Shown here one piece after another: positions 20,117 to 38,051 of a stretch of 64,000 bases of DNA. The position numbers were made by a program, and so were the translations under genes. This DNA is from Saprospiraceae bacterium (GTDB lineage: Bacteria > Bacteroidota > Bacteroidia > Chitinophagales > Saprospiraceae). The stretch covers positions 18,470 through 82,469 of the forward strand of contig JALHQW010000032.1 of assembly GCA_022841745.1 (NCBI GenBank), read 5' to 3'. Within the stretch, counting starts at the first letter, position 1; every line of letters starts with the position of its first letter. Below the pieces are notes generated by a model that was given only the letters and a program-made list of their open reading frames with translations, was not told the DNA's origin and did not search any database.

Positions 20117-20311
20117 ACTAAAGCAGGGTTTTTGAACCCTTGTAGAAAGCTTTTGAAGAAAAATTTCCACGAATGCTTTGAATTTACGCCAACCGTGCAG
20201 TATCTTCGCGACTGCATTTAGAAGCACAATGCCTTCGATACAATAGGCGATAAAAAATCGTCAGATGTTAAATACCGAACTTTGGGTATGAACTTGAAGG
20301 CAACATGGAGT

Positions 20312-20319
20312 TAAATTTG
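20312..20319 (+). promoter_or_regulatory. candidate -7 box TAAATTTG, unit 1
   Basis: It matches the Bacteroidota -7 consensus TAnnTTTG and is conserved in unit 2 at 29264-29271, followed in both by TATTCT. It lies 576 bases before the small secreted gene. I do not see a well-spaced TTG -33 element, so the call is tentative. Confidence 0.4.
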
Positions 20320-20400
20320 TATTCTCTTTTTTAGAATATAAAAACCGAAAGGTTTCGACAGCAGAACATCAGAATTATAATCCAAATCCGCGAACATTTT

Positions 20401-20529
20401 ATGATCCAAGTTTACTTCTTTCCTACAACCGATTTCACACCAGTTCACTTTGATTCCATTCAAAGAATCCCGTTAAGGGTATCATCACCATTCTACTCCG
20501 CCAAGTTCCGGCGGCCCGTTTCCGGCTAA
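20401..20529 (+). CDS. conserved 42-codon leader ORF, unit 1
   Basis: ATG to TAA encodes a peptide beginning MIQVYFFPTTDFTPVHFDS. Unit 2 has a counterpart MVQLYFFPQTDFIPYELDS. The first 22 codons align with no gap; most differences fall at codon positions one and three, and few at position two, as expected for protein-coding sequence. The C-terminal halves differ. It may be a leader peptide controlling the downstream genes, or a remnant of a gene. No ribosome-binding site is recognisable and I know no family. The coding call is an inference. Confidence 0.4.
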   Translation: MIQVYFFPTTDFTPVHFDSIQRIPLRVSSPFYSAKFRRPVSG

Positions 20530-20714
20530 TTGATTTTTTTTCTGATTGTTTGCTCTGAAAAATAAAATTTGGAGTTGTTTTAACCATTTTACACAAAAGA
20601 ATTGGGCTTTGCCCGTTTTGCAAGATTTGCTATTAGCAAATTATAATCCATGGCAAATTATAATCTCATTTGGAAAACGAATCTTACACAATATGCCTTC
20701 ATGCGTAAGGCAAT

Positions 20715-20756
20715 GGCATTAGTCGGCCTCGGTGGCAGGGCTAATGCCTTTTTTTT
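20715..20756 (+). terminator. intrinsic-terminator-like hairpin in the leader, unit 1
   Basis: GGCATTAG pairs with CTAATGCC around an 18-base loop and is followed directly by eight T. It lies 173 bases before the small gene start. Unit 2 has an unrelated hairpin at 171 bases. It could terminate a leader RNA of about 400 nt or act as an attenuator for the genes that follow. Confidence 0.6.
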
Positions 20757-20887
20757 GGGTTCAACGGATGTTCTGATAAAGGCTTAAAGAGAAAAGCAAG
20801 GGATTGACATTCAACAAGTTGCGTCAGTTTCTTTTCTTGTTCGTGTTTGTTTTTTTTCAAATATTTTTAACTAAAATCTTTAATCTT

Positions 20888-21337
20888 ATGAAAAAAGTGA
20901 ATTTCAAAGTTGTCCTTACGGCACTTTCGTTCGCGTTTGCCTTCTTCTTGGGGGTTAGCACGGCTGAAGCGCAGGTAGGTGCATCCTTGACTGCTGGCGG
21001 TGCAGGAGTGCCCGTCGACAAGGCCTCATCGGGGATTTACTCGCTTCCACAGGGGAACTTCCAAAGCCCCCAGGTTGCGATGAATACGCTGATGAACGAG
21101 ATGAACAGCATCAAGAATATGCTGATTCAGATACAAAATGAGTCGGATCCGACTTTCATTGCAATGGTTCGGTTGCTTACCTACTACCAAGGCATCCACC
21201 AGGCACTTCTTGCTGGCCAATCTGTGCCACAGGCAATCGTGACTGGACTTGGCGCTGTTAGTAGCAATGAGTTTAGCACCAAAATTCCTGCAAGCTACCT
21301 CACCTTGAGGAACCAGGCAATTGCGTTGCTCGACTAA
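20888..21337 (+). CDS. small secreted protein paired with giant protein C
   Basis: 149 residues, starting at the ATG that yields the signal peptide MKKVNFKVVLTALSFAFAFF...AEAQ; an in-frame ATG 28 codons upstream gives a poorer N-terminus. The mature part of about 120 residues is likely mostly helical and contains PQGNF, LLAGQSVP and a terminal ALLD, all conserved in the unit 2 counterpart. It has no T9SS tail, lipobox or cysteine cluster. It is 87 bases before giant gene C on the same strand, so probably co-transcribed. No family is recognised. A periplasmic or outer-membrane helper for the giant protein is a guess based on the repeated pairing. Confidence 0.75.
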   Translation: MKKVNFKVVLTALSFAFAFFLGVSTAEAQVGASLTAGGAGVPVDKASSGIYSLPQGNFQSPQVAMNTLMNEMNSIKNMLIQIQNESDPTFIAMVRLLTYYQGIHQALLAGQSVPQAIVTGLGAVSSNEFSTKIPASYLTLRNQAIALLD

Positions 21338-21424
21338 AAAACCGGGAGCAAGCTATTGGCTCGGCTAATGCTTTCTTCCAAACAATTTTTGTTTTAATTC
21401 TTTAACTTAAATTTTCATAATCTC

Positions 21425-24400
21425 ATGAAAAAAAGAACATTGACGTACCTCGGTATGGTTCTTTTGAACGTCTTGTTTGCGGCTCAACTTTTCGCCCAGA
21501 CTAACGTCAATATGCCGTACAATACAGGTCCGACAACTTTTACAATTGCACCACCAGCTACCTGTTTCTTCAACTTTTTTGACAACGGTGGTCCTGGTGG
21601 TAACTACTCCAACAACTCTGGAGTAAACTCAATTGCTACTTTCGCACCATCCAACCCTGCTACGCACCGCATACAGGCAAACTTCAGCAGCTTGTCTGCA
21701 GAGGTGGGTTGGGATGCACTTTTCATCCACAATGGCAACTCTGTAGCTTCTCCACTAATTCCTGGTACAGCTACCACGTTTAACTTCGGTGGCGGTGGCT
21801 GGAACTCTAGCCCAGGCGTCGTTACATCTACTGATGCCTCTGGTGCCCTTACCTTCCGTTTCCGTTCGGATGCGTCTGTAACGGCTACTGGTTGGGTTGC
21901 TACTGTAGCTCAAGTGCCCGTCAGTGCTTGTGCAATGACGGCTCCTGCCAACATCACTACTGGCAACTCGCCTGCTTCGGCTTGCTCAGCCAACGTGACC
22001 ACGGCGGCTCCATCCTTCGCTCCTGCTGGCTGCAACACGGCTTTCTCGCTGCAGTACAGGGTGAACGGCGGTACGCCAGTTGTGATTGGTGCTGTAGTTC
22101 CTGCTACAGTTACAATTCTTGGGCTTCCAGTTGGTGCCAACACCATCACTTGGCAGTTGGTTGACCCATGTGGTAACGTAGTAGTTGCTACTGCTACGCA
22201 AACCATTACGGTTAACGACACGACGCCTCCGGTAATCACTTGCCCGGCTGACATCGTTATCAACCTTGACGCTGGCGAGTGCTGTGCATTCGTTAACTAC
22301 AACGTAACTGCTTCTGACAACTGCCCGGTATTCGTACCTGCTCTGTTCACGCAGAATCCTCCAACGAATAGCCCTACTCAGGCGATTTCCCCAGGTCTAT
22401 CCTTGAACTGCGGTTTTGCGCAGACGAGGTTTGGCCGTGTGTTCCTTGCTACTTCGGCAATCAGGATCACGGGCTTGCAAGTTGGCATACGTGCTCCCGG
22501 TGCTGGTGCTTATACTTACAACATCTACCGTTTGACTTCAGGTACTGCTCCTGCAGCTGGCAACGCCAACATGCAGTTGCTGTTTGGCCCTTTCAACGTG
22601 AACATGCCTAACGTCACCACTACTTACGTTCCTGTTAACTTCCCAACTGCGACCAACATCGCAGCTGGCGACAGGTACTTCATCGAAATCATTGACCAAG
22701 ATGGTAACTTCACGATGGGTAACATCGAGATTCCTGATAACCCAGGTACACCATCTTACATTGCTGCCAATGCTTGCGGCTTGCCAAGCTTCGGTACTTT
22801 CGCTTCCGTAGGTTTCCCTAACCTCTCCTTGGCCTTCAACGTAGTGGCTCAAGTAGAGGCTCCGCTTGTTCCAGTACAGACTTCAGGCACGCCTTCTGGC
22901 AGCTTGTACTGCGTTGGCACAACCCAGAACTGCTTCACGGCTACCGACGGTGTAGGTCTTACTTCTACTTGCTGCTTCAACGTAATCATCCGTGAGTACG
23001 CCAACCCATCGCAGCAGATGGCCTGCAACGACAACGTTCAGATCAGCCTCGACCAGCAGTGCGTGGCAGTGATCGGTGCCGACGACATCCTTGAGGGCGG
23101 CCTCTACGGCTGCTACGACACCCGCTACAAGACGGAGATCGTGACGCCGATGGGCCAGATCATCACCGGCCCGAACGGTGAGGCCATCGTTGACGCCAGC
23201 TACATCCCCGGCCCGCACACGGTCAGGGTGACCGACCTGGTCACCGGCCAGAGCTGCTGGGGCTCCATCATGGTGAAGGACAAGCTCCCGCCGGTGATCG
23301 AGTGCCGCGACATCACGATCCCCTGCACGGTTGACCCTGCCACGCTCAACGAGCCGGCACCAGCCATCCAGGGCCCACAGGCCCTGATCCTCACCGGCCT
23401 CAACGACATCATCGAGAACGGTGCGAACTCGCCACGCAACTACAATTTCGACTTCAGCTACCTACCTCCAAATACACCAGTATTGGACGCTAACGTACGC
23501 TTGAAGCTGACGGGCCACACCTGGCTCCCAGACCTCACCGTTACGCTGATCGCACCAGATGCCACGCAGCGCAACGTGATGACCATCGGCGGTTGCATCC
23601 TCCAGGAGTGGCCGATCGACGCCGTGTTCTCCGACGAGGGCTCCGCCATCACCCTCTGCGTACAGCTGAACGCCGGCGGCGCCGAGCTGCAGGCCCTTAC
23701 GGGCGGCGTTTCGCAGCCCACGCTGATGCAGTTCTTCGACGGCAAGGACGCCAGCGGCACCTGGACCGTGCGCATTACCGACAACTTCCCCGCCGACGAC
23801 GGCGTGATTGAAGAGGTGGGCGTAATCCTCGACGTTAACTTGCCAGCAGTCATCCCATCCGACAACTGCGGCGGTGTCAACGTGACTTATTTTGACAGCT
23901 ATGTTGATGCTGGTACTTGTGACGCTGGTCAAATTACCAGGACTTGGACGGCCACCGACGATTGGCAGAACTCTGCCAGCTGCGTACAGATCATCACCAT
24001 CGAGCGCCCGACGCTCGACGACGTGGTACCGCCAGCTGACGTGATGTGGACCTGCGAGCAGTACGATGCGTTCCCGAACATCACGGGCGCCACTGCGCTG
24101 CACCCGTTCATCACGGACGCCGACCCTGCAACTGCGGTGATCGAGGTGAACCTCGACCCGAACTGCGACGACCTCGACCTGAACCTGGGCACGCCCGTGA
24201 CGCAGGACAACCCGGGCATCAACGCCACGAACGTTGCCAACGGCGGCCTCGGCTGCCCAGGCTCGAACCCGTTCTTCGGCAACAACGGCCTTGACGACGC
24301 GGACGTTCTCGCACTGACCGGCTCCGGCCTGCCTACCATCGACGGCCTGCCGTTGACTGCTGCCTGCGAGATCACCTGGGACTACGACGACCTGCTCATC

Positions 24401-27400
24401 AACGAGTGCGCCGGCACGTTCAAGATCCTCCGTTCCTGGACGCTCATCGACTGGTGCGTGAACCCGTACCGTATCGTGAAGTTCGACCAGATCATCAAGG
24501 TGGTTGACAACAAGGCACCGGTTCTCGAGCTGTTCGCAGTAGCTGGCGAGACGACGAGCAACTACGGCACGCACGACATCCCCGCCCTCGGCAACGGCTC
24601 TAACGGCAGCGGCCCGGGCGTCATCAACGGCAACCAGGGCGGCGGCTGCAACCAGGAGCCACAGCTCAGCGGCGGCACTTCTTTCCGTGCCCTCGTGCAA
24701 CTGCCACAGAGCCTCACGCCTGAGCAGTTCACGAACGTCCGCCTTGAGAAGCTCTGGTTGGAAGTTGACCACGAGCGCCTCAGCGACCTCGACATCTTCC
24801 TCCGCTCGCCGGACAACCGGATCCTCCAGATCACGGCCAACAACGGCGGCAACGGCACGTCCATCGACGCCGACTTCTACGACGCCGCCCCTGGCAACGT
24901 CAACGAGGCGCAGTTCAACGTGATCGGCGACTTCAAGCCGGAGGGCCACAACCAGGTGCAGTACAGCTACGCCAATGCGTTCGGCCAGGGCTTCAGCCCG
25001 AACTACACGGTGGTGTGGAACGTGACGTTCAACGGCATGCCGATGATGTTCAACTTCAACCTGACGCAGGCCAATGCGATGACGCAGCTTGCGCAGCTGA
25101 TGAACCTCAACGACCCGGCCGGCGGCATCGCACCTTACGTGCCGAACTGGACGAACAACGGCGCGGCCGGCAACACGAACACGAACCTGTTCTTCATCAG
25201 CGGCGGCTACTCCGGCAACGGGGTGCAGTACGGCCAGATGGTGATCACGCACACGCAGACGGGCACGGTTACGATCGTCAACCCGACGTCGCACGGCGCA
25301 AGCTGCGGCGGCTTCGCGGGCAACATCACGAGCTTCCTGCAGTTCGACAACCCGGCCCTCGGGTTCCAGGGCGACATGCTCGGCACCTGGGAACTGATCG
25401 TGTTCGACGAGGTGAGCGGTGCCACGGGCAAGGTGGTCAACTGGAAGCTGTTCTTCTCGACCGGCCCATTGACGATAGACGTCTACAACGCCAGCACGCC
25501 GCAGAACCAGGGCCCGCACGCAGTGTGCCAGGGCTCGGTGGTGGTCCCGCCCGTTGACGGCTACGACAACTGCAGCGGCATCGCCAGCTACAGGTCTGAG
25601 CTGTGGACGATCGTCCCGGGCAGCAACCCGGCAGTTCCGATGACGCAAGTAGGATTCGTCAACGGCAACGGTGGCGTGTTCAACAACGTGCCGCTGTTCC
25701 AGAACGGCGCCAACGCACGCTACATCGTGCGCCACTACGCCAAGGACGGCTGCAACAACACGGCGTTCATCGACCGCGTGATCCAGCTGCGCGACAAGGT
25801 TCCGCCGACCCCTATCTGCGTCGAGTTCACCGAGATCAGCATCACGAACAACTCGAACCAGACCGGCGGCTCCTGCTCAAGGCTGTACGCCGAGGACCTG
25901 GACCGCGCCAGCTACGACAACTGCAAGCCGGTGTACTTCCTGATCGCTAAGATGAACGACGCGACCAGCCCGAACATCTTCAACCGCTGCTACTACCCGT
26001 ACCGTGACTTCTGCTGCGACGAGCTCGGCGACCAGCAGGTGATCCTGTTGGTGCTGGACACGGACCCAACGCCGCTGTTCTCCACGCAGAACAACGCCAG
26101 CCTCGGCTGCGACGGCACGCCCGGCCTGTTCCTGAGCTCGAACTTCCAGTTCAACACGAGCGGCCTGAACTTCTCGACCTGCATGGTGAACGTACAGGTG
26201 ACGGACAAGATCCACCCGGTTCTCGTCAGCTGCCCGCCGAACCAGCGCATCAGCTGCGACTGGTACGCGGACAACATCGAGACGCAGCTCGCCGCCCTGA
26301 CGACGCCGGCCCAGCGCTCTGCGCTGCTGACGAGCCTCGGCTTCGGCGTTCCGACGTACTACGACAACTGCGCCATCGACCTGCAGGTGACGTTCTCCAC
26401 GAGCCTCGACCAGTGCCTCGAGGGCACGATCACCCGCTCCTGGAACAACACCCGCGACGGTGCCGGCAACGTGGCCCTGCAGCCCTGCACGCAGACGATC
26501 AACGTCGACCACGTCTCGGATTTCGCCGTTGAGTTCCCAGCTGACGTAACGATCAACTGTGGCGCCAACGTCCCGAACTTCGGCGAGCCGGAGATCTTCT
26601 ACGAGACCTGCGAACTTGTTGCCGTTACTAGCGACGACGAGGTTTACAACGTGGTTGCCGATGCCTGCTACAAGATCGTCCGCACGTGGACGGTGATCAA
26701 CTGGTGCGTGGTCGGCTCGGAGATCGACCAGGAAGTGGTCGAGCAGCCAGAGAACCAGTTGGGCCTTGCGTTCCCGGCTTGCGACATAGACAACGACGGC
26801 GACTGCGACGCCCGCACCTTCCGCGATTCCTGGAGGGGCAGCGTACCGGTTCCGAACCCGTTTGCGCCAGCGGCCTACCGCCTGCGCCCATTCGTGAACG
26901 ATGCGCACACGCCGAACACGAACCCGGTACTGAACTTCCGCAACCCTGACACGGACATCGACACCGACCCATGGGACGGCTACATCACGTACCAGCAGGT
27001 GATCAAGGTACAGGACAACGTGGACCCAGTGTTCACGAACGGCTGCGTCATCCCCGACGTTTGCATCGAGGACAACGGCTGCACGGCGACGATCCTGTTG
27101 CCAGAGCCGGAGATCACGGAGTGCAGCGACAACTACACGGTGACCGGCCACGTGCTCATCGGCGGCGTATGGATCAACGGCTTCAGCCCGATCCTCGGCG
27201 TTGCCCCCGGCACCTACCAGGTCCGCTACGTTGCGAACGACAACTGCAACAACCAGACGCAGTGCCTGAGCACCGTTACGGTGAAGGACTGCAAGAAGCC
27301 AACGCCGTACTGCAAGAACGGCGTGATCATCGAGATCATGCAGACCGGCATGGTAGAGGTATGGGCGAGCGACCTCGACGCGGGCAGCTTCGACAACTGC

Positions 27401-28816
27401 CCTCCGACGCAGTCACCGAAGCTCAGCTTCTCGGCCAACGTCAACAACATCAGCATCACCTTCACCTGCGACGACCTCGGCACGCAGGAAGTTGAGCTGT
27501 GGGTTACCGACGCAGCCGGCAACCAGGACTTCTGCACAACTTTCGTGGTTATCCAGGACAACATGGGCGCTTGCGACGACGACGACCCGCTCGTGGCAGG
27601 CACGATCGCCAACGAGGACGACCTCGCTGTTGAGGGCGTCAGCGTCAACGTGAACAGCCCGCAGGGCTTCACCGGCAACGTGGCGACGAACGTGGCAGGC
27701 CAGTACGGCGTGAACGTACCGGTGAACAGCGACGTGACCATCACGCCTGCGCTGGACGAGAACCCGCTGAACGGCGTGTCCACGTTCGACCTGGTGCTGA
27801 TCAGCAAGCACATCCTCGGCGTGACGCCGCTTGGCAGCCCGTACAAGATCATCGCAGCCGACGCCAACCGCTCGAACAGCGTGACGACGTTCGACCTCGT
27901 GGAGATCCGCAAGCTCATCCTGTTCATCAACAGCGACTTCCCGAACAACACTTCGTGGAGGTTCGTTGACGCAGCTCACAGCTTTGCGAACCCGGCGAAC
28001 CCGTTTGCCGCTTCGTTCCCAGAGGTGATCAACCTGAACGATGTTACGGTTGACCAGTTGAACAACAACTTCGTTGCCGTGAAGGTGGGCGACGTGAACG
28101 GTTCAGCCGCAGTCAACCTCCTCGGCGCTGCCGACGAGCGCAACAAGGTGGGCGACCTGGTGCTGAACGCCGACGACATGGAACTGGTCGCAGGCCAGGA
28201 GTACACGGTCGAGTTCAAGGCCACTGACTTCAACGTCAGCGGCTACCAGTTCAGCATGAACTTCGACGCCAAGGCGCTGGAGTTCGTGGGCATCGCCTCC
28301 GGCCTTGCCGACGCAAGCAACTTCGGCACCACGATGGTGAAGGAGGGCGTGCTGACCGCAAGCTGGAACAGCGACGAGGCGAAGGCACTTGCCAGCGGCG
28401 AGGTGGTGTTCGGCCTGACGTTCAAGGCGCTGCAGAGCGGCCGCATGAGCGAGCAGGTTGGCATCAGCAGCAGCCACACGGCAGCCGAGGCGTACAACAG
28501 CTCGAACGGGCTGATGAACGTTGCGCTTTCGTTCAACAACAACCTGGTGACCGGTGCGTTCGACCTGTACCAGAACACACCGAACCCGTTTGCCAGCGTC
28601 ACGACGATTGGCTTCTATCTGCCCGAAGCAACTTCTGCGACGCTGACGATCAGCGATGTCCAAGGTAAAGTGGTACGAGTAATCGAAGGCGACTACAGCA
28701 AGGGCCACAACACGGTCAACCTGAAGCGCGACGACTTCGGTGCCGCAGGCGTACTGTACTACCGCTTGGATGCGGGCAGCGACAGCGCTACCCGGAAGAT
28801 GATCCTGGTGGATTAA
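21425..28816 (+). CDS. giant T9SS surface protein C (CUB, HYR, P-like, dockerin, cohesin domains)
   Basis: 2463 residues. Signal peptide (to LFAQ), then a CUB-like domain (about 26-160: DNGGPGGNYSNN, WDALFIHNG, FRFRSD). An HYR domain starts at PPVITCPADIVINLD (269) and resumes at NCFTATDG (about 503); a foreign module of about 175 residues sits between. The shared Cys domain (CNDNVQISLD to SCWGSIMVKDK) and two proprotein-convertase P-like beta domains (about 655-811 and 1092-1352) follow. More HYR/Ig-like repeats lead to a carboxypeptidase-regulatory-like fold (2055-2110), dockerin F-hands DENPLNGVSTFD and DANRSNSVTTFD, a cohesin-like domain (2251-2358) and a T9SS tail (NTPNPFASVTTIGF to KMILVD). 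From residue 576 on it is identical to protein D. Likely an exposed adhesin or scaffold. Confidence 0.88.
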   Translation: MKKRTLTYLGMVLLNVLFAAQLFAQTNVNMPYNTGPTTFTIAPPATCFFNFFDNGGPGGNYSNNSGVNSIATFAPSNPATHRIQANFSSLSAEVGWDALFIHNGNSVASPLIPGTATTFNFGGGGWNSSPGVVTSTDASGALTFRFRSDASVTATGWVATVAQVPVSACAMTAPANITTGNSPASACSANVTTAAPSFAPAGCNTAFSLQYRVNGGTPVVIGAVVPATVTILGLPVGANTITWQLVDPCGNVVVATATQTITVNDTTPPVITCPADIVINLDAGECCAFVNYNVTASDNCPVFVPALFTQNPPTNSPTQAISPGLSLNCGFAQTRFGRVFLATSAIRITGLQVGIRAPGAGAYTYNIYRLTSGTAPAAGNANMQLLFGPFNVNMPNVTTTYVPVNFPTATNIAAGDRYFIEIIDQDGNFTMGNIEIPDNPGTPSYIAANACGLPSFGTFASVGFPNLSLAFNVVAQVEAPLVPVQTSGTPSGSLYCVGTTQNCFTATDGVGLTSTCCFNVIIREYANPSQQMACNDNVQISLDQQCVAVIGADDILEGGLYGCYDTRYKTEIVTPMGQIITGPNGEAIVDASYIPGPHTVRVTDLVTGQSCWGSIMVKDKLPPVIECRDITIPCTVDPATLNEPAPAIQGPQALILTGLNDIIENGANSPRNYNFDFSYLPPNTPVLDANVRLKLTGHTWLPDLTVTLIAPDATQRNVMTIGGCILQEWPIDAVFSDEGSAITLCVQLNAGGAELQALTGGVSQPTLMQFFDGKDASGTWTVRITDNFPADDGVIEEVGVILDVNLPAVIPSDNCGGVNVTYFDSYVDAGTCDAGQITRTWTATDDWQNSASCVQIITIERPTLDDVVPPADVMWTCEQYDAFPNITGATALHPFITDADPATAVIEVNLDPNCDDLDLNLGTPVTQDNPGINATNVANGGLGCPGSNPFFGNNGLDDADVLALTGSGLPTIDGLPLTAACEITWDYDDLLINECAGTFKILRSWTLIDWCVNPYRIVKFDQIIKVVDNKAPVLELFAVAGETTSNYGTHDIPALGNGSNGSGPGVINGNQGGGCNQEPQLSGGTSFRALVQLPQSLTPEQFTNVRLEKLWLEVDHERLSDLDIFLRSPDNRILQITANNGGNGTSIDADFYDAAPGNVNEAQFNVIGDFKPEGHNQVQYSYANAFGQGFSPNYTVVWNVTFNGMPMMFNFNLTQANAMTQLAQLMNLNDPAGGIAPYVPNWTNNGAAGNTNTNLFFISGGYSGNGVQYGQMVITHTQTGTVTIVNPTSHGASCGGFAGNITSFLQFDNPALGFQGDMLGTWELIVFDEVSGATGKVVNWKLFFSTGPLTIDVYNASTPQNQGPHAVCQGSVVVPPVDGYDNCSGIASYRSELWTIVPGSNPAVPMTQVGFVNGNGGVFNNVPLFQNGANARYIVRHYAKDGCNNTAFIDRVIQLRDKVPPTPICVEFTEISITNNSNQTGGSCSRLYAEDLDRASYDNCKPVYFLIAKMNDATSPNIFNRCYYPYRDFCCDELGDQQVILLVLDTDPTPLFSTQNNASLGCDGTPGLFLSSNFQFNTSGLNFSTCMVNVQVTDKIHPVLVSCPPNQRISCDWYADNIETQLAALTTPAQRSALLTSLGFGVPTYYDNCAIDLQVTFSTSLDQCLEGTITRSWNNTRDGAGNVALQPCTQTINVDHVSDFAVEFPADVTINCGANVPNFGEPEIFYETCELVAVTSDDEVYNVVADACYKIVRTWTVINWCVVGSEIDQEVVEQPENQLGLAFPACDIDNDGDCDARTFRDSWRGSVPVPNPFAPAAYRLRPFVNDAHTPNTNPVLNFRNPDTDIDTDPWDGYITYQQVIKVQDNVDPVFTNGCVIPDVCIEDNGCTATILLPEPEITECSDNYTVTGHVLIGGVWINGFSPILGVAPGTYQVRYVANDNCNNQTQCLSTVTVKDCKKPTPYCKNGVIIEIMQTGMVEVWASDLDAGSFDNCPPTQSPKLSFSANVNNISITFTCDDLGTQEVELWVTDAAGNQDFCTTFVVIQDNMGACDDDDPLVAGTIANEDDLAVEGVSVNVNSPQGFTGNVATNVAGQYGVNVPVNSDVTITPALDENPLNGVSTFDLVLISKHILGVTPLGSPYKIIAADANRSNSVTTFDLVEIRKLILFINSDFPNNTSWRFVDAAHSFANPANPFAASFPEVINLNDVTVDQLNNNFVAVKVGDVNGSAAVNLLGAADERNKVGDLVLNADDMELVAGQEYTVEFKATDFNVSGYQFSMNFDAKALEFVGIASGLADASNFGTTMVKEGVLTASWNSDEAKALASGEVVFGLTFKALQSGRMSEQVGISSSHTAAEAYNSSNGLMNVALSFNNNLVTGAFDLYQNTPNPFASVTTIGFYLPEATSATLTISDVQGKVVRVIEGDYSKGHNTVNLKRDDFGAAGVLYYRLDAGSDSATRKMILVD

Positions 28817-29029
28817 CGACATAGCACGGCAGGCGTGCGGGCGGCCCTTGTTGGCCGCCCGCCCCGCCCCGTGGGTTTGTCCGTTGCTAGCAGACGAATA
28901 TGAAGAAATACGTCCAATGACCGTTTTACGGCGGCGCTCCGGCCCTGCTGTGGCAAGACTTAAATCGGTTTTTGGGATGGCCTCTCTCCACTCGCGTGGA
29001 GGGGGGCTTTTTTGTTTGACGTAAATAGC
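23150..29029 (+). repeat. long direct repeat, copy 1 (5.88 kb)
   Basis: No base difference was seen against 32172-38051 at an offset of 9022; all six-frame translations I could compare across it are identical. The last difference upstream is at 23149 (G versus C). Five further differences, four of them synonymous, lie within 165 bases before it. Downstream, identity ends just after GTAAATAGC, beyond the terminator. This is a recent duplication or gene conversion tract. Confidence 0.92.
28980..29014 (+). terminator. intrinsic terminator after giant gene C
   Basis: GCCTCTCTCCAC pairs with GTGGAGGGGGGC (two G-T wobbles) around TCGC, followed by seven T. It is inside the long repeat and is duplicated at 38002-38036. 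Confidence 0.8.
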
Positions 29030-29263: not shown

Positions 29264-29271
29264 TAAATTTG
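29264..29271 (+). promoter_or_regulatory. candidate -7 box TAAATTTG, unit 2
   Basis: Same octamer and following TATTCT as at 20312, 557 bases before the small gene of unit 2. The DNA just upstream differs between the units, which fits a conserved box. No clear -33 element is seen. Confidence 0.4.
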
Positions 29272-29350
29272 TATTCTTATTTTTGGGATGCAAATTCAAG
29301 AATTTTAGACAGCAAGATCTCAGAATTATAATCCAAATCCGTGAACATTT

Positions 29351-29494
29351 ATGGTTCAACTTTACTTCTTTCCACAGACCGATTTCATACCTTACGAACT
29401 GGACTCCGTTCAGTACCATTCAATTGATTCCGTTTCACTATTCTCAACTTCGACTGCTGGAGTAAGCAATGCCCGGAGGGTTTCCTATTTCTGA
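29351..29494 (+). CDS. conserved 47-codon leader ORF, unit 2
   Basis: Encodes MVQLYFFPQTDFIPYELDS and on to VSYF. The N-terminal YFFP, TDF and DS residues match the unit 1 ORF at 20401 without gaps, although the DNA differs at many wobble positions. The downstream half is unrelated or shifted. Same caveats as for the first copy: no known family, no visible ribosome-binding site, coding status inferred from the substitution pattern. Confidence 0.4.
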   Translation: MVQLYFFPQTDFIPYELDSVQYHSIDSVSLFSTSTAGVSNARRVSYF

Positions 29495-29649
29495 TTTTTG
29501 CGTTTAGTTAGTATTGTTTTTTCTTTAACCATATACACACATCAATAGTATATCGTACTGATTTTCAGGGGATTGCTGTTGATTTTGGCAACTAATGGCA
29601 AATTGTAATCCAATCTGTAAGACGAGTCTTACGCATATTGATACCCATC

Positions 29650-29698
29650 AGGAAAGGGGCAGTGCTTTGCCGTGGAGGCAAACCACTGCCCCTTTCCT
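29650..29698 (+). promoter_or_regulatory. strong two-part hairpin in the leader, unit 2
   Basis: AGGAAAGGGGCAGTG (29650-29664) pairs perfectly with 29684-29698, and TTTGCC pairs with GGCAAA inside it. It lies 171 bases before the small gene, the same place as the hairpin of unit 1, though the stem sequences are unrelated. Only GTTT follows, so termination here would be weaker than in unit 1. An attenuator, RNA-stability element or terminator of a leader RNA are all possible. Confidence 0.6.
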
Positions 29699-29820
29699 GT
29701 TTGGGGGTATCGGGCATCAGATAGGATTCTAAAAAAGCAAGGTGATTTTGAGTGCAGGCCACCTACGCCTCGCTACAAATTGCTCTTTAATCAATATTTT
29801 TTAACTTAAATTTTTAATTC

Positions 29821-30267
29821 ATGGAAAAAGTGAAATTCAAAGTTGTCTTGGGGGCACTTTCGTTCGCGTTCTTCCTCCTTTTGGGGATGAACCGGGTGGA
29901 AGCTCAGTCTTCTTCGACAACTGTTGGCACAGGCGTTCCAAACGCTAAGCCAGGGTCACCGGCCGCAGTTGCGAACGTCCCACAGGGGAACTTCGAGAAT
30001 GCAGATGACGCTAGGGTGATTTTGGCCAACGAAATGGCCGCCTTGAAAGATCAGTTGGCAGTGCTTACGCCTGGCAATCCGATCTACACTTCCGTCGAGT
30101 TGCACTATGTATATTATGGTGAAATCGACAGTGCATTGTTGGCCGGTGTATCCGTTCCTAACAGCATCGTGCAAGGGCTTGGTATCTTTATGAGCGATGC
30201 TTACAACGTGAGCACGGCTACCTTGAACCAACTCCGCCAGGCTGCCATCAATTTGCTGGACAACTAA
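29821..30267 (+). CDS. small secreted protein paired with giant protein D
   Basis: 148 residues with signal peptide MEKVKFKVVLGALSFAFFLLL...VEAQ. It is clearly homologous to the unit 1 small protein: shared signal peptide pattern, GVP, PQGNF, LLAGxSVP, GLG and terminal LLD. The rest has diverged far more than the giant protein bodies. It ends 59 bases before giant gene D on the same strand. No family, lipobox or sorting tail is seen. That the pair diverges along with the giant N-termini suggests a role matched to the variable part (inference). Confidence 0.75.
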   Translation: MEKVKFKVVLGALSFAFFLLLGMNRVEAQSSSTTVGTGVPNAKPGSPAAVANVPQGNFENADDARVILANEMAALKDQLAVLTPGNPIYTSVELHYVYYGEIDSALLAGVSVPNSIVQGLGIFMSDAYNVSTATLNQLRQAAINLLDN

Positions 30268-30326
30268 TGGCCAAGTTGTTTTTTTGTTGTTTTTGAAATC
30301 ATTTCTTATTAACAAATCTTAATCTC

Positions 30327-33300
30327 ATGCGAAAAGTAAATTATACATGGCAAAACCTCAAAACGTGGCTTGCCTTGGTATTGCTTGGGGTCGGCGCTAT
30401 CGGCTACTCCCAAGCTACGTTCACAGGGGCTAACTTCAACATTCCGTTGGCTGGTGGTACATCTGGTCCAGCCTCCGGTACTGTTGGTGTTGCCTGCGTT
30501 GGCCCAATCGCCAACGGCGCCAACATCACGTTGAGCGTGAACTTTGCCCACACCTTCGTGGGTGACCTCAATATGTGGCTGACTGCACCAAGTGGTCAGG
30601 TATTGGAGTTGAGCACCCGCAATGGCGGTGGCAACAACAACATGAATGTTGTTTTCTCCGATGCCGGTGCCAACAATATTGCTTCAATTGTTTCCACAGC
30701 TTCGGCTGGTATTGGCTGCCCAACGACAACCAATGCCTATAGCGGTACACTCCGCCCAGAAGGCCGGAACAACGTGATTACTGCTTTCAACGTTGCTCCT
30801 TCCAACGTCCCTGCTGTTGGTACTTTTACCTTTGCCAACACCTTCTCGGGTGTGAACGCAAATGGTAACTGGACACTGACCATTGACGACGGTGTGGGTG
30901 GCGATTCAGGTAATACTTGTGCTTGGTCCATCAGCTTCGCTGGTGTTGCAGTACCTACTTGTACTTTCGTAGGTGGTCCAGTGCTTCCTACCCTTAACCT
31001 TTCTACAGCTACCAACAACTGCGTAGGCGTACCCGTTGCAGTTCCTGCAACGCAGGGTGATTGCACTGGCGCCGTAGTTGAAGCTAGCGTAAATGGTGGT
31101 GCCTTTGCCGTAGTTGCTGGCCCAACAATTCCTGGCTTGCCTGTAGGCGTCAACACGATTGTTTGGAGGGTAACGAATGCTTGCCTTCAGGTGAGCACTG
31201 CTACACAAACAGTGAACGTAGCTGACCTTGTACCGCCGGTAATCACTTGCCCGGCTAACATCGTCATCAACCTTGACGCTGGCGAGTGCTGTGCTTTCGT
31301 TAACTACAACGTAACGGCTACCGACAACTGTCCGTCATTTGGCCCTGTCCAAAGCGCACAGTTCCCAACTACGATACTGCCACACGGTGGTGGTGCCATC
31401 ACGGTGGCTGGCAACAATCTTCCGGGCGGTTTCTTCTTCAACCTGACCAACACTTCGGGTGGCCCAATCCAGGTCACAGGTTACCAAGTACGCTTTGGTG
31501 CATCGCAGTTTGGTGTGGTTCCATCGCCACGTACGGTTAACACCTATTATACTACTGCTGCAACGACGTTTGTTGGCAACACTGGCAACGCTGGTGCTTG
31601 GACATCTTCTGGTGTTGCTTCCGTAACGGTTGCAGGCCCGAACTCTGAGTTCTCTCAGGTTAACCTGAGCGCACCGTTCACACTTGCCGCTGGCGCAACC
31701 AAAGGTATCTACCTCTTTGGCACACAGTCAAGCCTTGTTTACAACAATGCTGGCAACTATATTCCTACTGTTACACAAGGCATCCTTACTGCCAACTTCG
31801 GTTCTTCCAGCACGGGTCTCTTCGGTGGTACGATTGCCAACCGCACTGGTAACGTGGTTGTTCAGTACAGGGCTACCCTGGCTGGACCGCCTGTTGTCCA
31901 GACTCAAGGCTCGCCTTCTGGCAGCGAGTTCTGCGTTGGTACCACAACGAATTGCTTCACGGCTACCGATAACGTAGGCCTTACAGCTTCTTGTTGCTTT
32001 GACGTGGTCATCCGTGAGTACGCCAACCCATCGCAGCAGATGGCCTGCAACGACAACGTGCAGATCAGCCTCGACCAGCAGTGCGTGGCAGTGATCGGCG
32101 CCGACGACATCCTGGAGGGCGGCCTCTACGGCTGCTACGACACCCGCTACAAGACGGAGATCGTGACGCCCATGGGCCAGATCATCACCGGCCCGAACGG
32201 TGAGGCCATCGTTGACGCCAGCTACATCCCCGGCCCGCACACGGTCAGGGTGACCGACCTGGTCACCGGCCAGAGCTGCTGGGGCTCCATCATGGTGAAG
32301 GACAAGCTCCCGCCGGTGATCGAGTGCCGCGACATCACGATCCCCTGCACGGTTGACCCTGCCACGCTCAACGAGCCGGCACCAGCCATCCAGGGCCCAC
32401 AGGCCCTGATCCTCACCGGCCTCAACGACATCATCGAGAACGGTGCGAACTCGCCACGCAACTACAATTTCGACTTCAGCTACCTACCTCCAAATACACC
32501 AGTATTGGACGCTAACGTACGCTTGAAGCTGACGGGCCACACCTGGCTCCCAGACCTCACCGTTACGCTGATCGCACCAGATGCCACGCAGCGCAACGTG
32601 ATGACCATCGGCGGTTGCATCCTCCAGGAGTGGCCGATCGACGCCGTGTTCTCCGACGAGGGCTCCGCCATCACCCTCTGCGTACAGCTGAACGCCGGCG
32701 GCGCCGAGCTGCAGGCCCTTACGGGCGGCGTTTCGCAGCCCACGCTGATGCAGTTCTTCGACGGCAAGGACGCCAGCGGCACCTGGACCGTGCGCATTAC
32801 CGACAACTTCCCCGCCGACGACGGCGTGATTGAAGAGGTGGGCGTAATCCTCGACGTTAACTTGCCAGCAGTCATCCCATCCGACAACTGCGGCGGTGTC
32901 AACGTGACTTATTTTGACAGCTATGTTGATGCTGGTACTTGTGACGCTGGTCAAATTACCAGGACTTGGACGGCCACCGACGATTGGCAGAACTCTGCCA
33001 GCTGCGTACAGATCATCACCATCGAGCGCCCGACGCTCGACGACGTGGTACCGCCAGCTGACGTGATGTGGACCTGCGAGCAGTACGATGCGTTCCCGAA
33101 CATCACGGGCGCCACTGCGCTGCACCCGTTCATCACGGACGCCGACCCTGCAACTGCGGTGATCGAGGTGAACCTCGACCCGAACTGCGACGACCTCGAC
33201 CTGAACCTGGGCACGCCCGTGACGCAGGACAACCCGGGCATCAACGCCACGAACGTTGCCAACGGCGGCCTCGGCTGCCCAGGCTCGAACCCGTTCTTCG

Positions 33301-36300
33301 GCAACAACGGCCTTGACGACGCGGACGTTCTCGCACTGACCGGCTCCGGCCTGCCTACCATCGACGGCCTGCCGTTGACTGCTGCCTGCGAGATCACCTG
33401 GGACTACGACGACCTGCTCATCAACGAGTGCGCCGGCACGTTCAAGATCCTCCGTTCCTGGACGCTCATCGACTGGTGCGTGAACCCGTACCGTATCGTG
33501 AAGTTCGACCAGATCATCAAGGTGGTTGACAACAAGGCACCGGTTCTCGAGCTGTTCGCAGTAGCTGGCGAGACGACGAGCAACTACGGCACGCACGACA
33601 TCCCCGCCCTCGGCAACGGCTCTAACGGCAGCGGCCCGGGCGTCATCAACGGCAACCAGGGCGGCGGCTGCAACCAGGAGCCACAGCTCAGCGGCGGCAC
33701 TTCTTTCCGTGCCCTCGTGCAACTGCCACAGAGCCTCACGCCTGAGCAGTTCACGAACGTCCGCCTTGAGAAGCTCTGGTTGGAAGTTGACCACGAGCGC
33801 CTCAGCGACCTCGACATCTTCCTCCGCTCGCCGGACAACCGGATCCTCCAGATCACGGCCAACAACGGCGGCAACGGCACGTCCATCGACGCCGACTTCT
33901 ACGACGCCGCCCCTGGCAACGTCAACGAGGCGCAGTTCAACGTGATCGGCGACTTCAAGCCGGAGGGCCACAACCAGGTGCAGTACAGCTACGCCAATGC
34001 GTTCGGCCAGGGCTTCAGCCCGAACTACACGGTGGTGTGGAACGTGACGTTCAACGGCATGCCGATGATGTTCAACTTCAACCTGACGCAGGCCAATGCG
34101 ATGACGCAGCTTGCGCAGCTGATGAACCTCAACGACCCGGCCGGCGGCATCGCACCTTACGTGCCGAACTGGACGAACAACGGCGCGGCCGGCAACACGA
34201 ACACGAACCTGTTCTTCATCAGCGGCGGCTACTCCGGCAACGGGGTGCAGTACGGCCAGATGGTGATCACGCACACGCAGACGGGCACGGTTACGATCGT
34301 CAACCCGACGTCGCACGGCGCAAGCTGCGGCGGCTTCGCGGGCAACATCACGAGCTTCCTGCAGTTCGACAACCCGGCCCTCGGGTTCCAGGGCGACATG
34401 CTCGGCACCTGGGAACTGATCGTGTTCGACGAGGTGAGCGGTGCCACGGGCAAGGTGGTCAACTGGAAGCTGTTCTTCTCGACCGGCCCATTGACGATAG
34501 ACGTCTACAACGCCAGCACGCCGCAGAACCAGGGCCCGCACGCAGTGTGCCAGGGCTCGGTGGTGGTCCCGCCCGTTGACGGCTACGACAACTGCAGCGG
34601 CATCGCCAGCTACAGGTCTGAGCTGTGGACGATCGTCCCGGGCAGCAACCCGGCAGTTCCGATGACGCAAGTAGGATTCGTCAACGGCAACGGTGGCGTG
34701 TTCAACAACGTGCCGCTGTTCCAGAACGGCGCCAACGCACGCTACATCGTGCGCCACTACGCCAAGGACGGCTGCAACAACACGGCGTTCATCGACCGCG
34801 TGATCCAGCTGCGCGACAAGGTTCCGCCGACCCCTATCTGCGTCGAGTTCACCGAGATCAGCATCACGAACAACTCGAACCAGACCGGCGGCTCCTGCTC
34901 AAGGCTGTACGCCGAGGACCTGGACCGCGCCAGCTACGACAACTGCAAGCCGGTGTACTTCCTGATCGCTAAGATGAACGACGCGACCAGCCCGAACATC
35001 TTCAACCGCTGCTACTACCCGTACCGTGACTTCTGCTGCGACGAGCTCGGCGACCAGCAGGTGATCCTGTTGGTGCTGGACACGGACCCAACGCCGCTGT
35101 TCTCCACGCAGAACAACGCCAGCCTCGGCTGCGACGGCACGCCCGGCCTGTTCCTGAGCTCGAACTTCCAGTTCAACACGAGCGGCCTGAACTTCTCGAC
35201 CTGCATGGTGAACGTACAGGTGACGGACAAGATCCACCCGGTTCTCGTCAGCTGCCCGCCGAACCAGCGCATCAGCTGCGACTGGTACGCGGACAACATC
35301 GAGACGCAGCTCGCCGCCCTGACGACGCCGGCCCAGCGCTCTGCGCTGCTGACGAGCCTCGGCTTCGGCGTTCCGACGTACTACGACAACTGCGCCATCG
35401 ACCTGCAGGTGACGTTCTCCACGAGCCTCGACCAGTGCCTCGAGGGCACGATCACCCGCTCCTGGAACAACACCCGCGACGGTGCCGGCAACGTGGCCCT
35501 GCAGCCCTGCACGCAGACGATCAACGTCGACCACGTCTCGGATTTCGCCGTTGAGTTCCCAGCTGACGTAACGATCAACTGTGGCGCCAACGTCCCGAAC
35601 TTCGGCGAGCCGGAGATCTTCTACGAGACCTGCGAACTTGTTGCCGTTACTAGCGACGACGAGGTTTACAACGTGGTTGCCGATGCCTGCTACAAGATCG
35701 TCCGCACGTGGACGGTGATCAACTGGTGCGTGGTCGGCTCGGAGATCGACCAGGAAGTGGTCGAGCAGCCAGAGAACCAGTTGGGCCTTGCGTTCCCGGC
35801 TTGCGACATAGACAACGACGGCGACTGCGACGCCCGCACCTTCCGCGATTCCTGGAGGGGCAGCGTACCGGTTCCGAACCCGTTTGCGCCAGCGGCCTAC
35901 CGCCTGCGCCCATTCGTGAACGATGCGCACACGCCGAACACGAACCCGGTACTGAACTTCCGCAACCCTGACACGGACATCGACACCGACCCATGGGACG
36001 GCTACATCACGTACCAGCAGGTGATCAAGGTACAGGACAACGTGGACCCAGTGTTCACGAACGGCTGCGTCATCCCCGACGTTTGCATCGAGGACAACGG
36101 CTGCACGGCGACGATCCTGTTGCCAGAGCCGGAGATCACGGAGTGCAGCGACAACTACACGGTGACCGGCCACGTGCTCATCGGCGGCGTATGGATCAAC
36201 GGCTTCAGCCCGATCCTCGGCGTTGCCCCCGGCACCTACCAGGTCCGCTACGTTGCGAACGACAACTGCAACAACCAGACGCAGTGCCTGAGCACCGTTA

Positions 36301-37838
36301 CGGTGAAGGACTGCAAGAAGCCAACGCCGTACTGCAAGAACGGCGTGATCATCGAGATCATGCAGACCGGCATGGTAGAGGTATGGGCGAGCGACCTCGA
36401 CGCGGGCAGCTTCGACAACTGCCCTCCGACGCAGTCACCGAAGCTCAGCTTCTCGGCCAACGTCAACAACATCAGCATCACCTTCACCTGCGACGACCTC
36501 GGCACGCAGGAAGTTGAGCTGTGGGTTACCGACGCAGCCGGCAACCAGGACTTCTGCACAACTTTCGTGGTTATCCAGGACAACATGGGCGCTTGCGACG
36601 ACGACGACCCGCTCGTGGCAGGCACGATCGCCAACGAGGACGACCTCGCTGTTGAGGGCGTCAGCGTCAACGTGAACAGCCCGCAGGGCTTCACCGGCAA
36701 CGTGGCGACGAACGTGGCAGGCCAGTACGGCGTGAACGTACCGGTGAACAGCGACGTGACCATCACGCCTGCGCTGGACGAGAACCCGCTGAACGGCGTG
36801 TCCACGTTCGACCTGGTGCTGATCAGCAAGCACATCCTCGGCGTGACGCCGCTTGGCAGCCCGTACAAGATCATCGCAGCCGACGCCAACCGCTCGAACA
36901 GCGTGACGACGTTCGACCTCGTGGAGATCCGCAAGCTCATCCTGTTCATCAACAGCGACTTCCCGAACAACACTTCGTGGAGGTTCGTTGACGCAGCTCA
37001 CAGCTTTGCGAACCCGGCGAACCCGTTTGCCGCTTCGTTCCCAGAGGTGATCAACCTGAACGATGTTACGGTTGACCAGTTGAACAACAACTTCGTTGCC
37101 GTGAAGGTGGGCGACGTGAACGGTTCAGCCGCAGTCAACCTCCTCGGCGCTGCCGACGAGCGCAACAAGGTGGGCGACCTGGTGCTGAACGCCGACGACA
37201 TGGAACTGGTCGCAGGCCAGGAGTACACGGTCGAGTTCAAGGCCACTGACTTCAACGTCAGCGGCTACCAGTTCAGCATGAACTTCGACGCCAAGGCGCT
37301 GGAGTTCGTGGGCATCGCCTCCGGCCTTGCCGACGCAAGCAACTTCGGCACCACGATGGTGAAGGAGGGCGTGCTGACCGCAAGCTGGAACAGCGACGAG
37401 GCGAAGGCACTTGCCAGCGGCGAGGTGGTGTTCGGCCTGACGTTCAAGGCGCTGCAGAGCGGCCGCATGAGCGAGCAGGTTGGCATCAGCAGCAGCCACA
37501 CGGCAGCCGAGGCGTACAACAGCTCGAACGGGCTGATGAACGTTGCGCTTTCGTTCAACAACAACCTGGTGACCGGTGCGTTCGACCTGTACCAGAACAC
37601 ACCGAACCCGTTTGCCAGCGTCACGACGATTGGCTTCTATCTGCCCGAAGCAACTTCTGCGACGCTGACGATCAGCGATGTCCAAGGTAAAGTGGTACGA
37701 GTAATCGAAGGCGACTACAGCAAGGGCCACAACACGGTCAACCTGAAGCGCGACGACTTCGGTGCCGCAGGCGTACTGTACTACCGCTTGGATGCGGGCA
37801 GCGACAGCGCTACCCGGAAGATGATCCTGGTGGATTAA
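30327..37838 (+). CDS. giant T9SS surface protein D (P-like, HYR, dockerin, cohesin domains)
   Basis: 2503 residues. After the signal peptide (to GYSQ) the first domain is proprotein-convertase P-like (about 28-210: HTFVGDLNMWLTAPSG, NWTLTIDDG), where protein C has a CUB-like domain. The HYR domain beginning PPVITCPANIVINLD (303) is interrupted by a module of about 185 residues unrelated to that of protein C and resumes near NCFTATDN. From there the order is as in protein C: Cys domain, two more P-like domains, HYR repeats, carboxypeptidase-regulatory-like fold, two dockerin F-hands, cohesin-like domain and T9SS tail. The last ~1890 residues are identical to C. Likely an exposed adhesin or scaffold with a changed outer end. 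Confidence 0.88.
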   Translation: MRKVNYTWQNLKTWLALVLLGVGAIGYSQATFTGANFNIPLAGGTSGPASGTVGVACVGPIANGANITLSVNFAHTFVGDLNMWLTAPSGQVLELSTRNGGGNNNMNVVFSDAGANNIASIVSTASAGIGCPTTTNAYSGTLRPEGRNNVITAFNVAPSNVPAVGTFTFANTFSGVNANGNWTLTIDDGVGGDSGNTCAWSISFAGVAVPTCTFVGGPVLPTLNLSTATNNCVGVPVAVPATQGDCTGAVVEASVNGGAFAVVAGPTIPGLPVGVNTIVWRVTNACLQVSTATQTVNVADLVPPVITCPANIVINLDAGECCAFVNYNVTATDNCPSFGPVQSAQFPTTILPHGGGAITVAGNNLPGGFFFNLTNTSGGPIQVTGYQVRFGASQFGVVPSPRTVNTYYTTAATTFVGNTGNAGAWTSSGVASVTVAGPNSEFSQVNLSAPFTLAAGATKGIYLFGTQSSLVYNNAGNYIPTVTQGILTANFGSSSTGLFGGTIANRTGNVVVQYRATLAGPPVVQTQGSPSGSEFCVGTTTNCFTATDNVGLTASCCFDVVIREYANPSQQMACNDNVQISLDQQCVAVIGADDILEGGLYGCYDTRYKTEIVTPMGQIITGPNGEAIVDASYIPGPHTVRVTDLVTGQSCWGSIMVKDKLPPVIECRDITIPCTVDPATLNEPAPAIQGPQALILTGLNDIIENGANSPRNYNFDFSYLPPNTPVLDANVRLKLTGHTWLPDLTVTLIAPDATQRNVMTIGGCILQEWPIDAVFSDEGSAITLCVQLNAGGAELQALTGGVSQPTLMQFFDGKDASGTWTVRITDNFPADDGVIEEVGVILDVNLPAVIPSDNCGGVNVTYFDSYVDAGTCDAGQITRTWTATDDWQNSASCVQIITIERPTLDDVVPPADVMWTCEQYDAFPNITGATALHPFITDADPATAVIEVNLDPNCDDLDLNLGTPVTQDNPGINATNVANGGLGCPGSNPFFGNNGLDDADVLALTGSGLPTIDGLPLTAACEITWDYDDLLINECAGTFKILRSWTLIDWCVNPYRIVKFDQIIKVVDNKAPVLELFAVAGETTSNYGTHDIPALGNGSNGSGPGVINGNQGGGCNQEPQLSGGTSFRALVQLPQSLTPEQFTNVRLEKLWLEVDHERLSDLDIFLRSPDNRILQITANNGGNGTSIDADFYDAAPGNVNEAQFNVIGDFKPEGHNQVQYSYANAFGQGFSPNYTVVWNVTFNGMPMMFNFNLTQANAMTQLAQLMNLNDPAGGIAPYVPNWTNNGAAGNTNTNLFFISGGYSGNGVQYGQMVITHTQTGTVTIVNPTSHGASCGGFAGNITSFLQFDNPALGFQGDMLGTWELIVFDEVSGATGKVVNWKLFFSTGPLTIDVYNASTPQNQGPHAVCQGSVVVPPVDGYDNCSGIASYRSELWTIVPGSNPAVPMTQVGFVNGNGGVFNNVPLFQNGANARYIVRHYAKDGCNNTAFIDRVIQLRDKVPPTPICVEFTEISITNNSNQTGGSCSRLYAEDLDRASYDNCKPVYFLIAKMNDATSPNIFNRCYYPYRDFCCDELGDQQVILLVLDTDPTPLFSTQNNASLGCDGTPGLFLSSNFQFNTSGLNFSTCMVNVQVTDKIHPVLVSCPPNQRISCDWYADNIETQLAALTTPAQRSALLTSLGFGVPTYYDNCAIDLQVTFSTSLDQCLEGTITRSWNNTRDGAGNVALQPCTQTINVDHVSDFAVEFPADVTINCGANVPNFGEPEIFYETCELVAVTSDDEVYNVVADACYKIVRTWTVINWCVVGSEIDQEVVEQPENQLGLAFPACDIDNDGDCDARTFRDSWRGSVPVPNPFAPAAYRLRPFVNDAHTPNTNPVLNFRNPDTDIDTDPWDGYITYQQVIKVQDNVDPVFTNGCVIPDVCIEDNGCTATILLPEPEITECSDNYTVTGHVLIGGVWINGFSPILGVAPGTYQVRYVANDNCNNQTQCLSTVTVKDCKKPTPYCKNGVIIEIMQTGMVEVWASDLDAGSFDNCPPTQSPKLSFSANVNNISITFTCDDLGTQEVELWVTDAAGNQDFCTTFVVIQDNMGACDDDDPLVAGTIANEDDLAVEGVSVNVNSPQGFTGNVATNVAGQYGVNVPVNSDVTITPALDENPLNGVSTFDLVLISKHILGVTPLGSPYKIIAADANRSNSVTTFDLVEIRKLILFINSDFPNNTSWRFVDAAHSFANPANPFAASFPEVINLNDVTVDQLNNNFVAVKVGDVNGSAAVNLLGAADERNKVGDLVLNADDMELVAGQEYTVEFKATDFNVSGYQFSMNFDAKALEFVGIASGLADASNFGTTMVKEGVLTASWNSDEAKALASGEVVFGLTFKALQSGRMSEQVGISSSHTAAEAYNSSNGLMNVALSFNNNLVTGAFDLYQNTPNPFASVTTIGFYLPEATSATLTISDVQGKVVRVIEGDYSKGHNTVNLKRDDFGAAGVLYYRLDAGSDSATRKMILVD

Positions 37839-38051
37839 CGACATAGCACGGCAGGCGTGCGGGCGGCCCTTGTTGGCCGCCCGCCCCGCCCCGTGGGTTT
37901 GTCCGTTGCTAGCAGACGAATATGAAGAAATACGTCCAATGACCGTTTTACGGCGGCGCTCCGGCCCTGCTGTGGCAAGACTTAAATCGGTTTTTGGGAT
38001 GGCCTCTCTCCACTCGCGTGGAGGGGGGCTTTTTTGTTTGACGTAAATAGC
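32172..38051 (+). repeat. long direct repeat, copy 2 (5.88 kb)
   Basis: Counterpart of 23150-29029, covering most of giant gene D, its 3' untranslated region and terminator. The flanks differ on both sides (30327-32000 versus 21425-22980 upstream; after 38051 versus 29029 downstream). That speaks for two real loci, although a tract of this length should be checked with long reads. Confidence 0.92.

What the first reader, a model, noticed from the sequence alone, without database searches (positions are those of the whole stretch)
20290..38051. Tandem duplication of a whole surface-protein cassette with a homogenised body
Two units of about 8.8 kb (leader, short ORF, small secreted protein, giant T9SS protein, terminator) lie head to tail. 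The last 5.88 kb appear identical, while the leaders, small proteins and giant N-termini have diverged strongly. A simple recent duplication would leave all parts equally similar. The pattern needs either gene conversion of the body or replacement of the outer ends. This could be a reservoir for changing an exposed surface protein by recombination.
Basis: partly seen in the sequence, partly recalled or inferred. Interest (0 to 1): 0.8.

Follow-up and report, generated by a model that had tools for sequence, protein, structure and literature searches.

The report
Different heads on one shared body
A bacterium, likely of the Saprospiraceae, carries two neighbouring genes for predicted giant surface proteins whose last three quarters are identical in the assembly while their front ends differ and have separate relatives elsewhere, a pattern that recurs in relatives and is likely kept by recombination that overwrites the shared body.

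Summary
Two cassettes lie head to tail at a 9.02-kb period; 5,880 bp (23150-29029 = 32172-38051) are identical, while leader, small protein and giant N-terminus (residues 1 to ~523) differ. Searches found only these two units in the genome, both complete genes. Relatives explain the pattern: body copies group by genome, but head 1 is 65% identical to a head of another species (G011) and 26-42% to head 2 next door outside shared HYR parts, and head 2 has its own relative (80-94% over residues 1-300). So the heads predate the body identity: most likely concerted evolution by gene conversion or unequal crossing-over. Same-contig pairs on contigs of 156 kb to 1.14 Mb show the contrast too (4 of 6 groups). 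An inserted head module combines freely with different first domains. Leaders carry a covarying hairpin, usually with a T run. Fourfold-site GC jumps from 0.32 to 0.80 at the junction here, a hint of GC-biased conversion, but whole-gene change points in relatives do not fall there. Caveat: the assembly looks short-read, so exact identity may be inflated. It is a T9SS counterpart of H. pylori babA/babB concerted evolution.

The parts
20312..20319 (+). TAAATTTG box, unit 1: candidate Bacteroidota -7 element (TAnnTTTG)
   Evidence: kept 61-63 nt before a TTATAATCC box in 5 of 8 unit leaders read and at 27 nt in G005; absent in G007 unit 2 and G002_C347; motif name recalled
20401..20529 (+). short ORF (42 aa) in leader 1
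   Evidence: similar start in unit 2, not shown to be translated
20715..20756 (+). leader 1 hairpin plus T run (attenuator-like)
20888..21337 (+). small protein 1 (149 aa), signal-peptide-like start by reading, predicted helical
21425..28816 (+). giant protein 1 (2,463 aa) with T9SS sorting tail
21425..22990 (+). head 1: possibly CUB-like first domain, HYR split by an inserted module
   Evidence: CUB assignment weak
23150..29029 (+). exact repeat, copy 1: body and 213 bp of 3' tail
28979..29008 (+). terminator-like hairpin, copy 1
29264..29271 (+). TAAATTTG box, unit 2
29351..29494 (+). short ORF (47 aa) in leader 2
29650..29698 (+). leader 2 hairpin, longer, without T run
29821..30267 (+). 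small protein 2 (148 aa)
30327..37838 (+). giant protein 2 (2,503 aa)
30327..32012 (+). head 2: P-domain first domain, HYR split by another inserted module
32172..38051 (+). exact repeat, copy 2
38001..38030 (+). terminator-like hairpin, copy 2

Best explanation
Two tandem genes for predicted T9SS giant proteins carry different heads on a body that is identical in the assembly, and the body is likely kept identical by repeated gene conversion or unequal crossing-over between the copies. Conversion would stop where the heads have diverged too far to pair, at the end of the HYR domain (residue ~523), so heads persist side by side while body and anchor evolve as one. Head modules would be exchanged between cassettes of relatives at shared flanks such as the HYR halves. 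Each unit would be transcribed on its own from a TAnnTTTG promoter through an attenuator-like hairpin, giving a cell two surface proteins with different tips and one stalk. Shown: identity in the assembly, head/body contrast, recurrence in relatives, body tree by genome, mosaic heads, hairpin covariation. Inferred: conversion as the mechanism, surface display, attenuation, and any benefit.
For: Bodies group by genome in 3 of 3 genomes with two copies in the tree (window pair identical; G007 and G002 pairs 100/100), while head 1 is 65% identical to G011 over 541 columns and 62-85% to P0007, against 26-42% to head 2 outside HYR parts. Its first 170 residues are 51-54% identical to G004, G008 and G007 unit 1. 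Head 2 has its own relative, P0009: 94, 80, 84% over residues 1-300. G007 tandem pair: heads 23-30% in three bins, bodies 82-96% beyond residue 800 and 66% at 575-800. Of 6 groups of listed hits with equal contig length, 4 show unlike heads on alike bodies: P0021/P0023 (1.14-Mb contig; 0.28 before, 0.99 after residue 506, identical run 844 aa), P0029/P0076, P0048/P0060/P0071, and weaker P0044/P0053. Taking the first domain as CUB-like or not, both inserted-module types X and Z occur with each. Three of 7 contig ends inside the locus in relatives fall at residues 522 to ~597, as repeats starting there would give.
Against: The assembly looks short-read, so exact identity and copy number are not proved here; no reads were seen. 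Two of the 6 same-contig groups do not show the pattern (P0046/P0088, P0051/P0095), and same-contig grouping rests on equal contig length, not names. G004 and G008 show one unit each in the stretches read. Whole heads of G004, G008 and G007 unit 1 are only 37-38% like head 1, no closer than parts of head 2. The mosaic of the body is weaker than it first looks: residues 900-1499 are even between P0007-like and P0009-like (43:50); only 1500-1899 (32:10) against 1900-2463 (19:59) differ, with limits chosen after seeing the data. A body duplicated recently and given a foreign leader-to-head segment would look much the same in this genome alone.
Confidence: 0.75

Rival explanations
1. Recent tandem duplication of one whole unit, after which the second unit's leader, small protein and head were replaced in one step by a foreign cassette.
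For: Zero differences over 5,880 bp fits one recent event; module replacement between relatives is seen; the body's mosaic is only partial.
Against: Other taxa show pairs at graded body identity (80% to 99% after the best change point), more like repeated homogenisation than one event; residues 1500-1899 and 1900-2463 of the body lean to different relatives (32:10 and 19:59).
Confidence: 0.19
2. Assembly artefact: one collapsed body contig was placed twice, or small differences were popped as bubbles, so the copies are only similar or come from different strains.
For: No 16S and no DDE_Tnp_1 found; the only 4 differences lie within 160 bp of the unlike flank, as bubble collapse would give. Identical repeats of hagA, rgpA and kgp could not be resolved by automated assembly (PMC5266723, passages and section 20).
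Against: G007 has two assembled, non-identical tandem units with the same contrast; a 1.14-Mb contig elsewhere has it with 844 identical residues in a row. So it more likely inflates the identity than creates the pattern.
Confidence: 0.12
3. Protein-level purifying selection alone keeps the bodies alike.
For: Bodies are conserved between species (51-83% in most bins, 32-56% at residues 575-800).
Against: Synonymous sites and 213 bp of non-coding tail are also identical.
Confidence: 0.01

Closest known systems
Helicobacter pylori babA/babB and homA/homB
   Same: 5' and middle parts resemble other strains' orthologues, 3' parts resemble the other copy in the same strain: concerted evolution of one end (PMC3960876, passages read)
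   Different: H. pylori babA and babB usually sit at separate loci A and B (same passages); here tandem T9SS giants, each with its own leader and small secreted-looking protein, and modules swapped inside the heads
Porphyromonas gingivalis rgpA, kgp, hagA
   Same: surface proteins with a T9SS-type C-terminal domain, different N-terminal parts and identical repeat sequences in the adhesin regions, combinatorial modules (PMC5266723, passages and section 20)
   Different: rgpA and kgp have catalytic N-terminal parts and hagA none; tandem cassettes with a partner gene are not described in the parts I read
Silent-cassette antigenic variation (for example Borrelia vlsE, Neisseria pilS; recalled)
   Same: recombination between related copies of a surface gene
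   Different: both copies here look like complete genes; no further fragments found by the searches made

Membership tests
Concerted evolution of paralogous surface genes (babA/babB type) | one end more alike within a genome than between genomes | tested here: met
   body 100% within; between genomes 51-83% in most bins, 32-56% at 575-800; tree by genome
Concerted evolution of paralogous surface genes (babA/babB type) | other end more alike between genomes than between copies | tested here: met
   head 1 to G011 65%, to head 2 26-42% outside HYR parts; head 2 to P0009 80-94% over residues 1-300
Concerted evolution of paralogous surface genes (babA/babB type) | conversion events observed directly | not testable with these tools
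   no strain series or reads
T9SS type A cargo | C-terminal sorting domain above curated cut-off | tested here: met
   TIGR04183 30.9 vs 23 bits; Pfam PF18962 was below its cut-off (21.1 vs 27)
T9SS type A cargo | signal peptide and export through T9SS | not tested
   signal-peptide-like starts by reading only
Silent-cassette antigenic variation | one expressed locus and several truncated donors | tested here: not met
   two full units and no further copies found in the draft; expression itself not tested
GC-biased gene conversion | GC rises with recombination, independent of codon selection | tested here: inconclusive
   step in this genome at the junction; ribosomal-region genes GC3 0.42-0.62; short-bin rises after the junction in G008, G005, G004 and G011, but no whole-gene change point there in 7 relatives' genes

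The most novel reading that the evidence does not exclude
The junction records GC-biased gene conversion in a bacterium within single reading frames: fourfold-site GC is 0.32 and 0.39 in the two non-converting heads and 0.80 in the converting body, with the best change point 5 codons from the identity junction in both genes, so the locus holds its own internal control for a disputed process.
Probability: 0.3. Interest if true: 0.82.

Novelty: new variant of a known kind. Interest (0 to 1): 0.6.

Why it matters
It suggests how environmental Bacteroidota can keep several tips on one T9SS stalk: the body is recombined into sameness while heads stay apart and modules reshuffle. If the composition step is due to conversion, one gene offers an internal test of GC-biased gene conversion in bacteria, which PMC4450053 (abstract) argues for and PMC8153448 (abstract) says has not been observed. 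It also warns that draft assemblies of relatives can break at this junction (3 of 7 contig ends examined).

Tried and rejected
Simple recent duplication: rejected, heads have separate relatives in other taxa. Silent cassettes: none found by the searches made. General GC step at the junction: change-point test on 10 proteins; strong at the junction in the two window genes only. G008 and G005 have weaker steps about 280-310 codons inside the body; G004 and G007 unit 1 only towards the C-terminus; G010, G002_C347, G007 unit 2 and own paralogue G000_C46 none above shuffles (G002_C205 and G000_C80 were skipped for too few head sites). In short bins right after the junction GC3 does rise in G008, G005, G004 and G011. 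Selection for codons of highly expressed genes: 23 ORFs of the ribosomal region (named by my reading, EF-G among them) have GC3 0.42-0.62, so unlikely; but other own-genome genes reach 0.78-0.81 (L115; one 135-aa reverse-strand ORF 0.90, probably spurious), so a GC-rich donor of the body is not excluded. Leader box as a private RNA element: of 17 pattern hits, 5 (L082, L084-L086, L090) are start regions of other giants, so it may descend from one; L074 (G028) was not examined further and was left out of the hairpin set; no Rfam family reached its gathering score in the window. Small protein fold: mean pLDDT 73, helices, no PDB match with E <= 0.001. Head 1 fold: mean pLDDT 65, 29 PDB matches at E <= 0.001; top ones include proteins I recall as containing CUB domains (neuropilin-2, enteropeptidase, cubilin, PCPE-1) at TM <= 0.35, mixed with cadherins and carbohydrate-binding proteins, so CUB-like is only a lead; Pfam found no CUB. 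G031 and G027 paralogues: 6 proteins of G031 share a C-terminal part at 70-87%, the neighbouring G027 pair 61%; no near-identity. Literature: no held paper has 'type IX secretion', 'tandem' and 'HYR domain' together; two hold 'Saprospiraceae' and 'gene conversion', off topic by their listing.

Full report
What is there. The window lies on an 82.5-kb contig (C32) of an 8.43-Mb, 178-contig draft. A same-genus member, G002, has a 9,622-base contig of the same length as a record titled Saprospiraceae bacterium FW602_bin.25, so the family is inferred. Two units run head to tail: leader (about 0.57 kb), small protein (149 and 148 aa, 44% identical), giant protein (2,463 and 2,503 aa), terminator-like hairpin. 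5,880 bp are identical. Near-identity starts at about 22,990, with 4 synonymous differences before 23150.

What the proteins are. The body carries P-domain and cohesin matches above cut-off, a dockerin-like match below it, and a T9SS tail. Heads share HYR halves split by an inserted module; head 2 begins with a P-domain. Head 1 begins with a domain that a low-confidence model likens, among others, to CUB-containing proteins.

The heads predate the body identity. Head 1 is 65% identical to the G011 head, about as far as the neighbouring HTTM protein (60%) and the small protein (62%), while head 2 next door is 26-42% outside HYR parts. P0007 is 62-85% like head 1 and P0009 is 80-94% like head 2 over residues 1-300. 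Against: heads of G004, G008 and G007 unit 1 share the first domain with head 1 (51-54%) but are only 37-38% alike over the whole head.

The body is homogenised. In a tree of residues 1350-2463 (11 rows: 9 unit bodies and 2 own-genome outgroups) the copies of this genome are identical and the G007 and G002 pairs each group at 100/100. In G007, units lie in tandem with heads 23-30% in three bins and bodies 82-96% beyond residue 800. The best is a pair labelled Lewinellaceae on a 1.14-Mb contig: 0.28 identity before and 0.99 after residue 506, 844 residues identical in a row, with the junction 8 residues before the CND motif (12 in the window pair). Others switch 49-53 residues before it (G007, P0060/P0071, P0048/P0071), 337 after it (P0029/P0076), or much earlier (P0044/P0053, P0048/P0060).

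Both parents may have contributed. Where P0007 (head 1 type) and P0009 (head 2 type) differ, the window's body follows P0009 at residues 500-599 (1:19) and P0007 at 600-899 (86:24), but there P0009 carries another module. It is even at 900-1499 (43:50), leans to P0007 at 1500-1899 (32:10) and to P0009 at 1900-2463 (19:59). The limits were chosen after seeing the data.

Modules reassort. X and Z are my labels for the inserted module: window unit 1 and G011 (CUB-like, X), G007 unit 1 (CUB-like, Z), G010 (P-domain, Z), G002_C347 (neither, X). P0009 keeps head 2's first domain but has a different inserted module (34% in the window at residue 420) and a different module in the start of the body, around residues 700-880 of giant 2.

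Relatives break here. I looked at 7 contig ends inside the locus, in G001, G002 (C205), G003, G005, G010, G011 and G012; three (G002, G011, G012) fall at residues 522 to about 597 of giant 1, two in the small protein, one just upstream of the giant and one inside the body. Repeats with unlike flanks would do this to short-read assemblies. The count was made after seeing the data.

Leaders. A box pattern gave 17 hits in 60 genomes. Leaving out 5 starts of other giants and L074, and adding G002_C347 by a looser pattern, 12 of 12 unit leaders fold a hairpin before the small-protein gene; in 8 stem pairs picked by hand, 95 of 96 cells pair and at least three pairs change on both sides. Ten of 12 are followed at once or within two bases by four or more T; window unit 2 is not, and G007 unit 2 has only a short run. 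A TAnnTTTG box lies upstream in 6 of 8 unit leaders read. Attenuation is inferred. The small protein was found twice in this genome and in 17 of 199 family genomes, this one included, at E <= 0.001, mostly weakly; carriers G004, G007 and G008 were evidently not in that draw.

Composition. Fourfold-site GC is 0.32 in head 1, 0.39 in head 2 and 0.80-0.81 in the body; the best change points are codons 528 and 568, 5 codons after the junctions used in the test, with log-likelihood gains 121 and 102 against at most 8.9 in shuffles. The ribosomal region does not share it. In 7 genes of relatives the best change point is not at the junction, though short bins after the junction rise in G008, G005, G004 and G011. 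So GC-biased conversion stays a hypothesis; a GC-rich donor is the main alternative.

Doubt. The assembly looks short-read: no 16S by two searches, no DDE_Tnp_1, though both family searches rang in only 9 of 14 controls. The four differences sit only near the unlike flank, as bubble collapse would leave them. I therefore read 'identical' as 'nearly or fully identical'.

Noticed in passing
9706-10398: Tandem array with a 57-bp period, copies 93-98% alike, just after a HYR/T9SS gene.
   Followed up: no
5318-5399, 15009-15095, 12297-12378, 11259-11319: Self-complementary stretches of 61-88 bp (88-100%) between genes, two of them alike (5318 and 15009, 87%); possibly bidirectional terminators or a mobile palindrome family.
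   Followed up: no
18779-20116: HTTM / vitamin K-dependent gamma-carboxylase-like gene directly upstream; also upstream of the unit in G004, G011 and G012.
   Followed up: partly
L082, L084, L085, L086, L090: The box CAARTTRTAATCY..ARTCTTAC found in the unit leaders also matches start regions of other giant genes, as if the leader kept the start of a lost giant.
   Followed up: partly
15186-18704: FG-GAP/UnbV_ASPIC protein near the unit, with relatives beside the locus in G001, G003, G005, G011 and G012.
   Followed up: partly
L117-L122 (G031): Six giants of another genus share a C-terminal part at 70-87% behind otherwise different N-terminal lengths, two of them cut by contig ends.
   Followed up: partly
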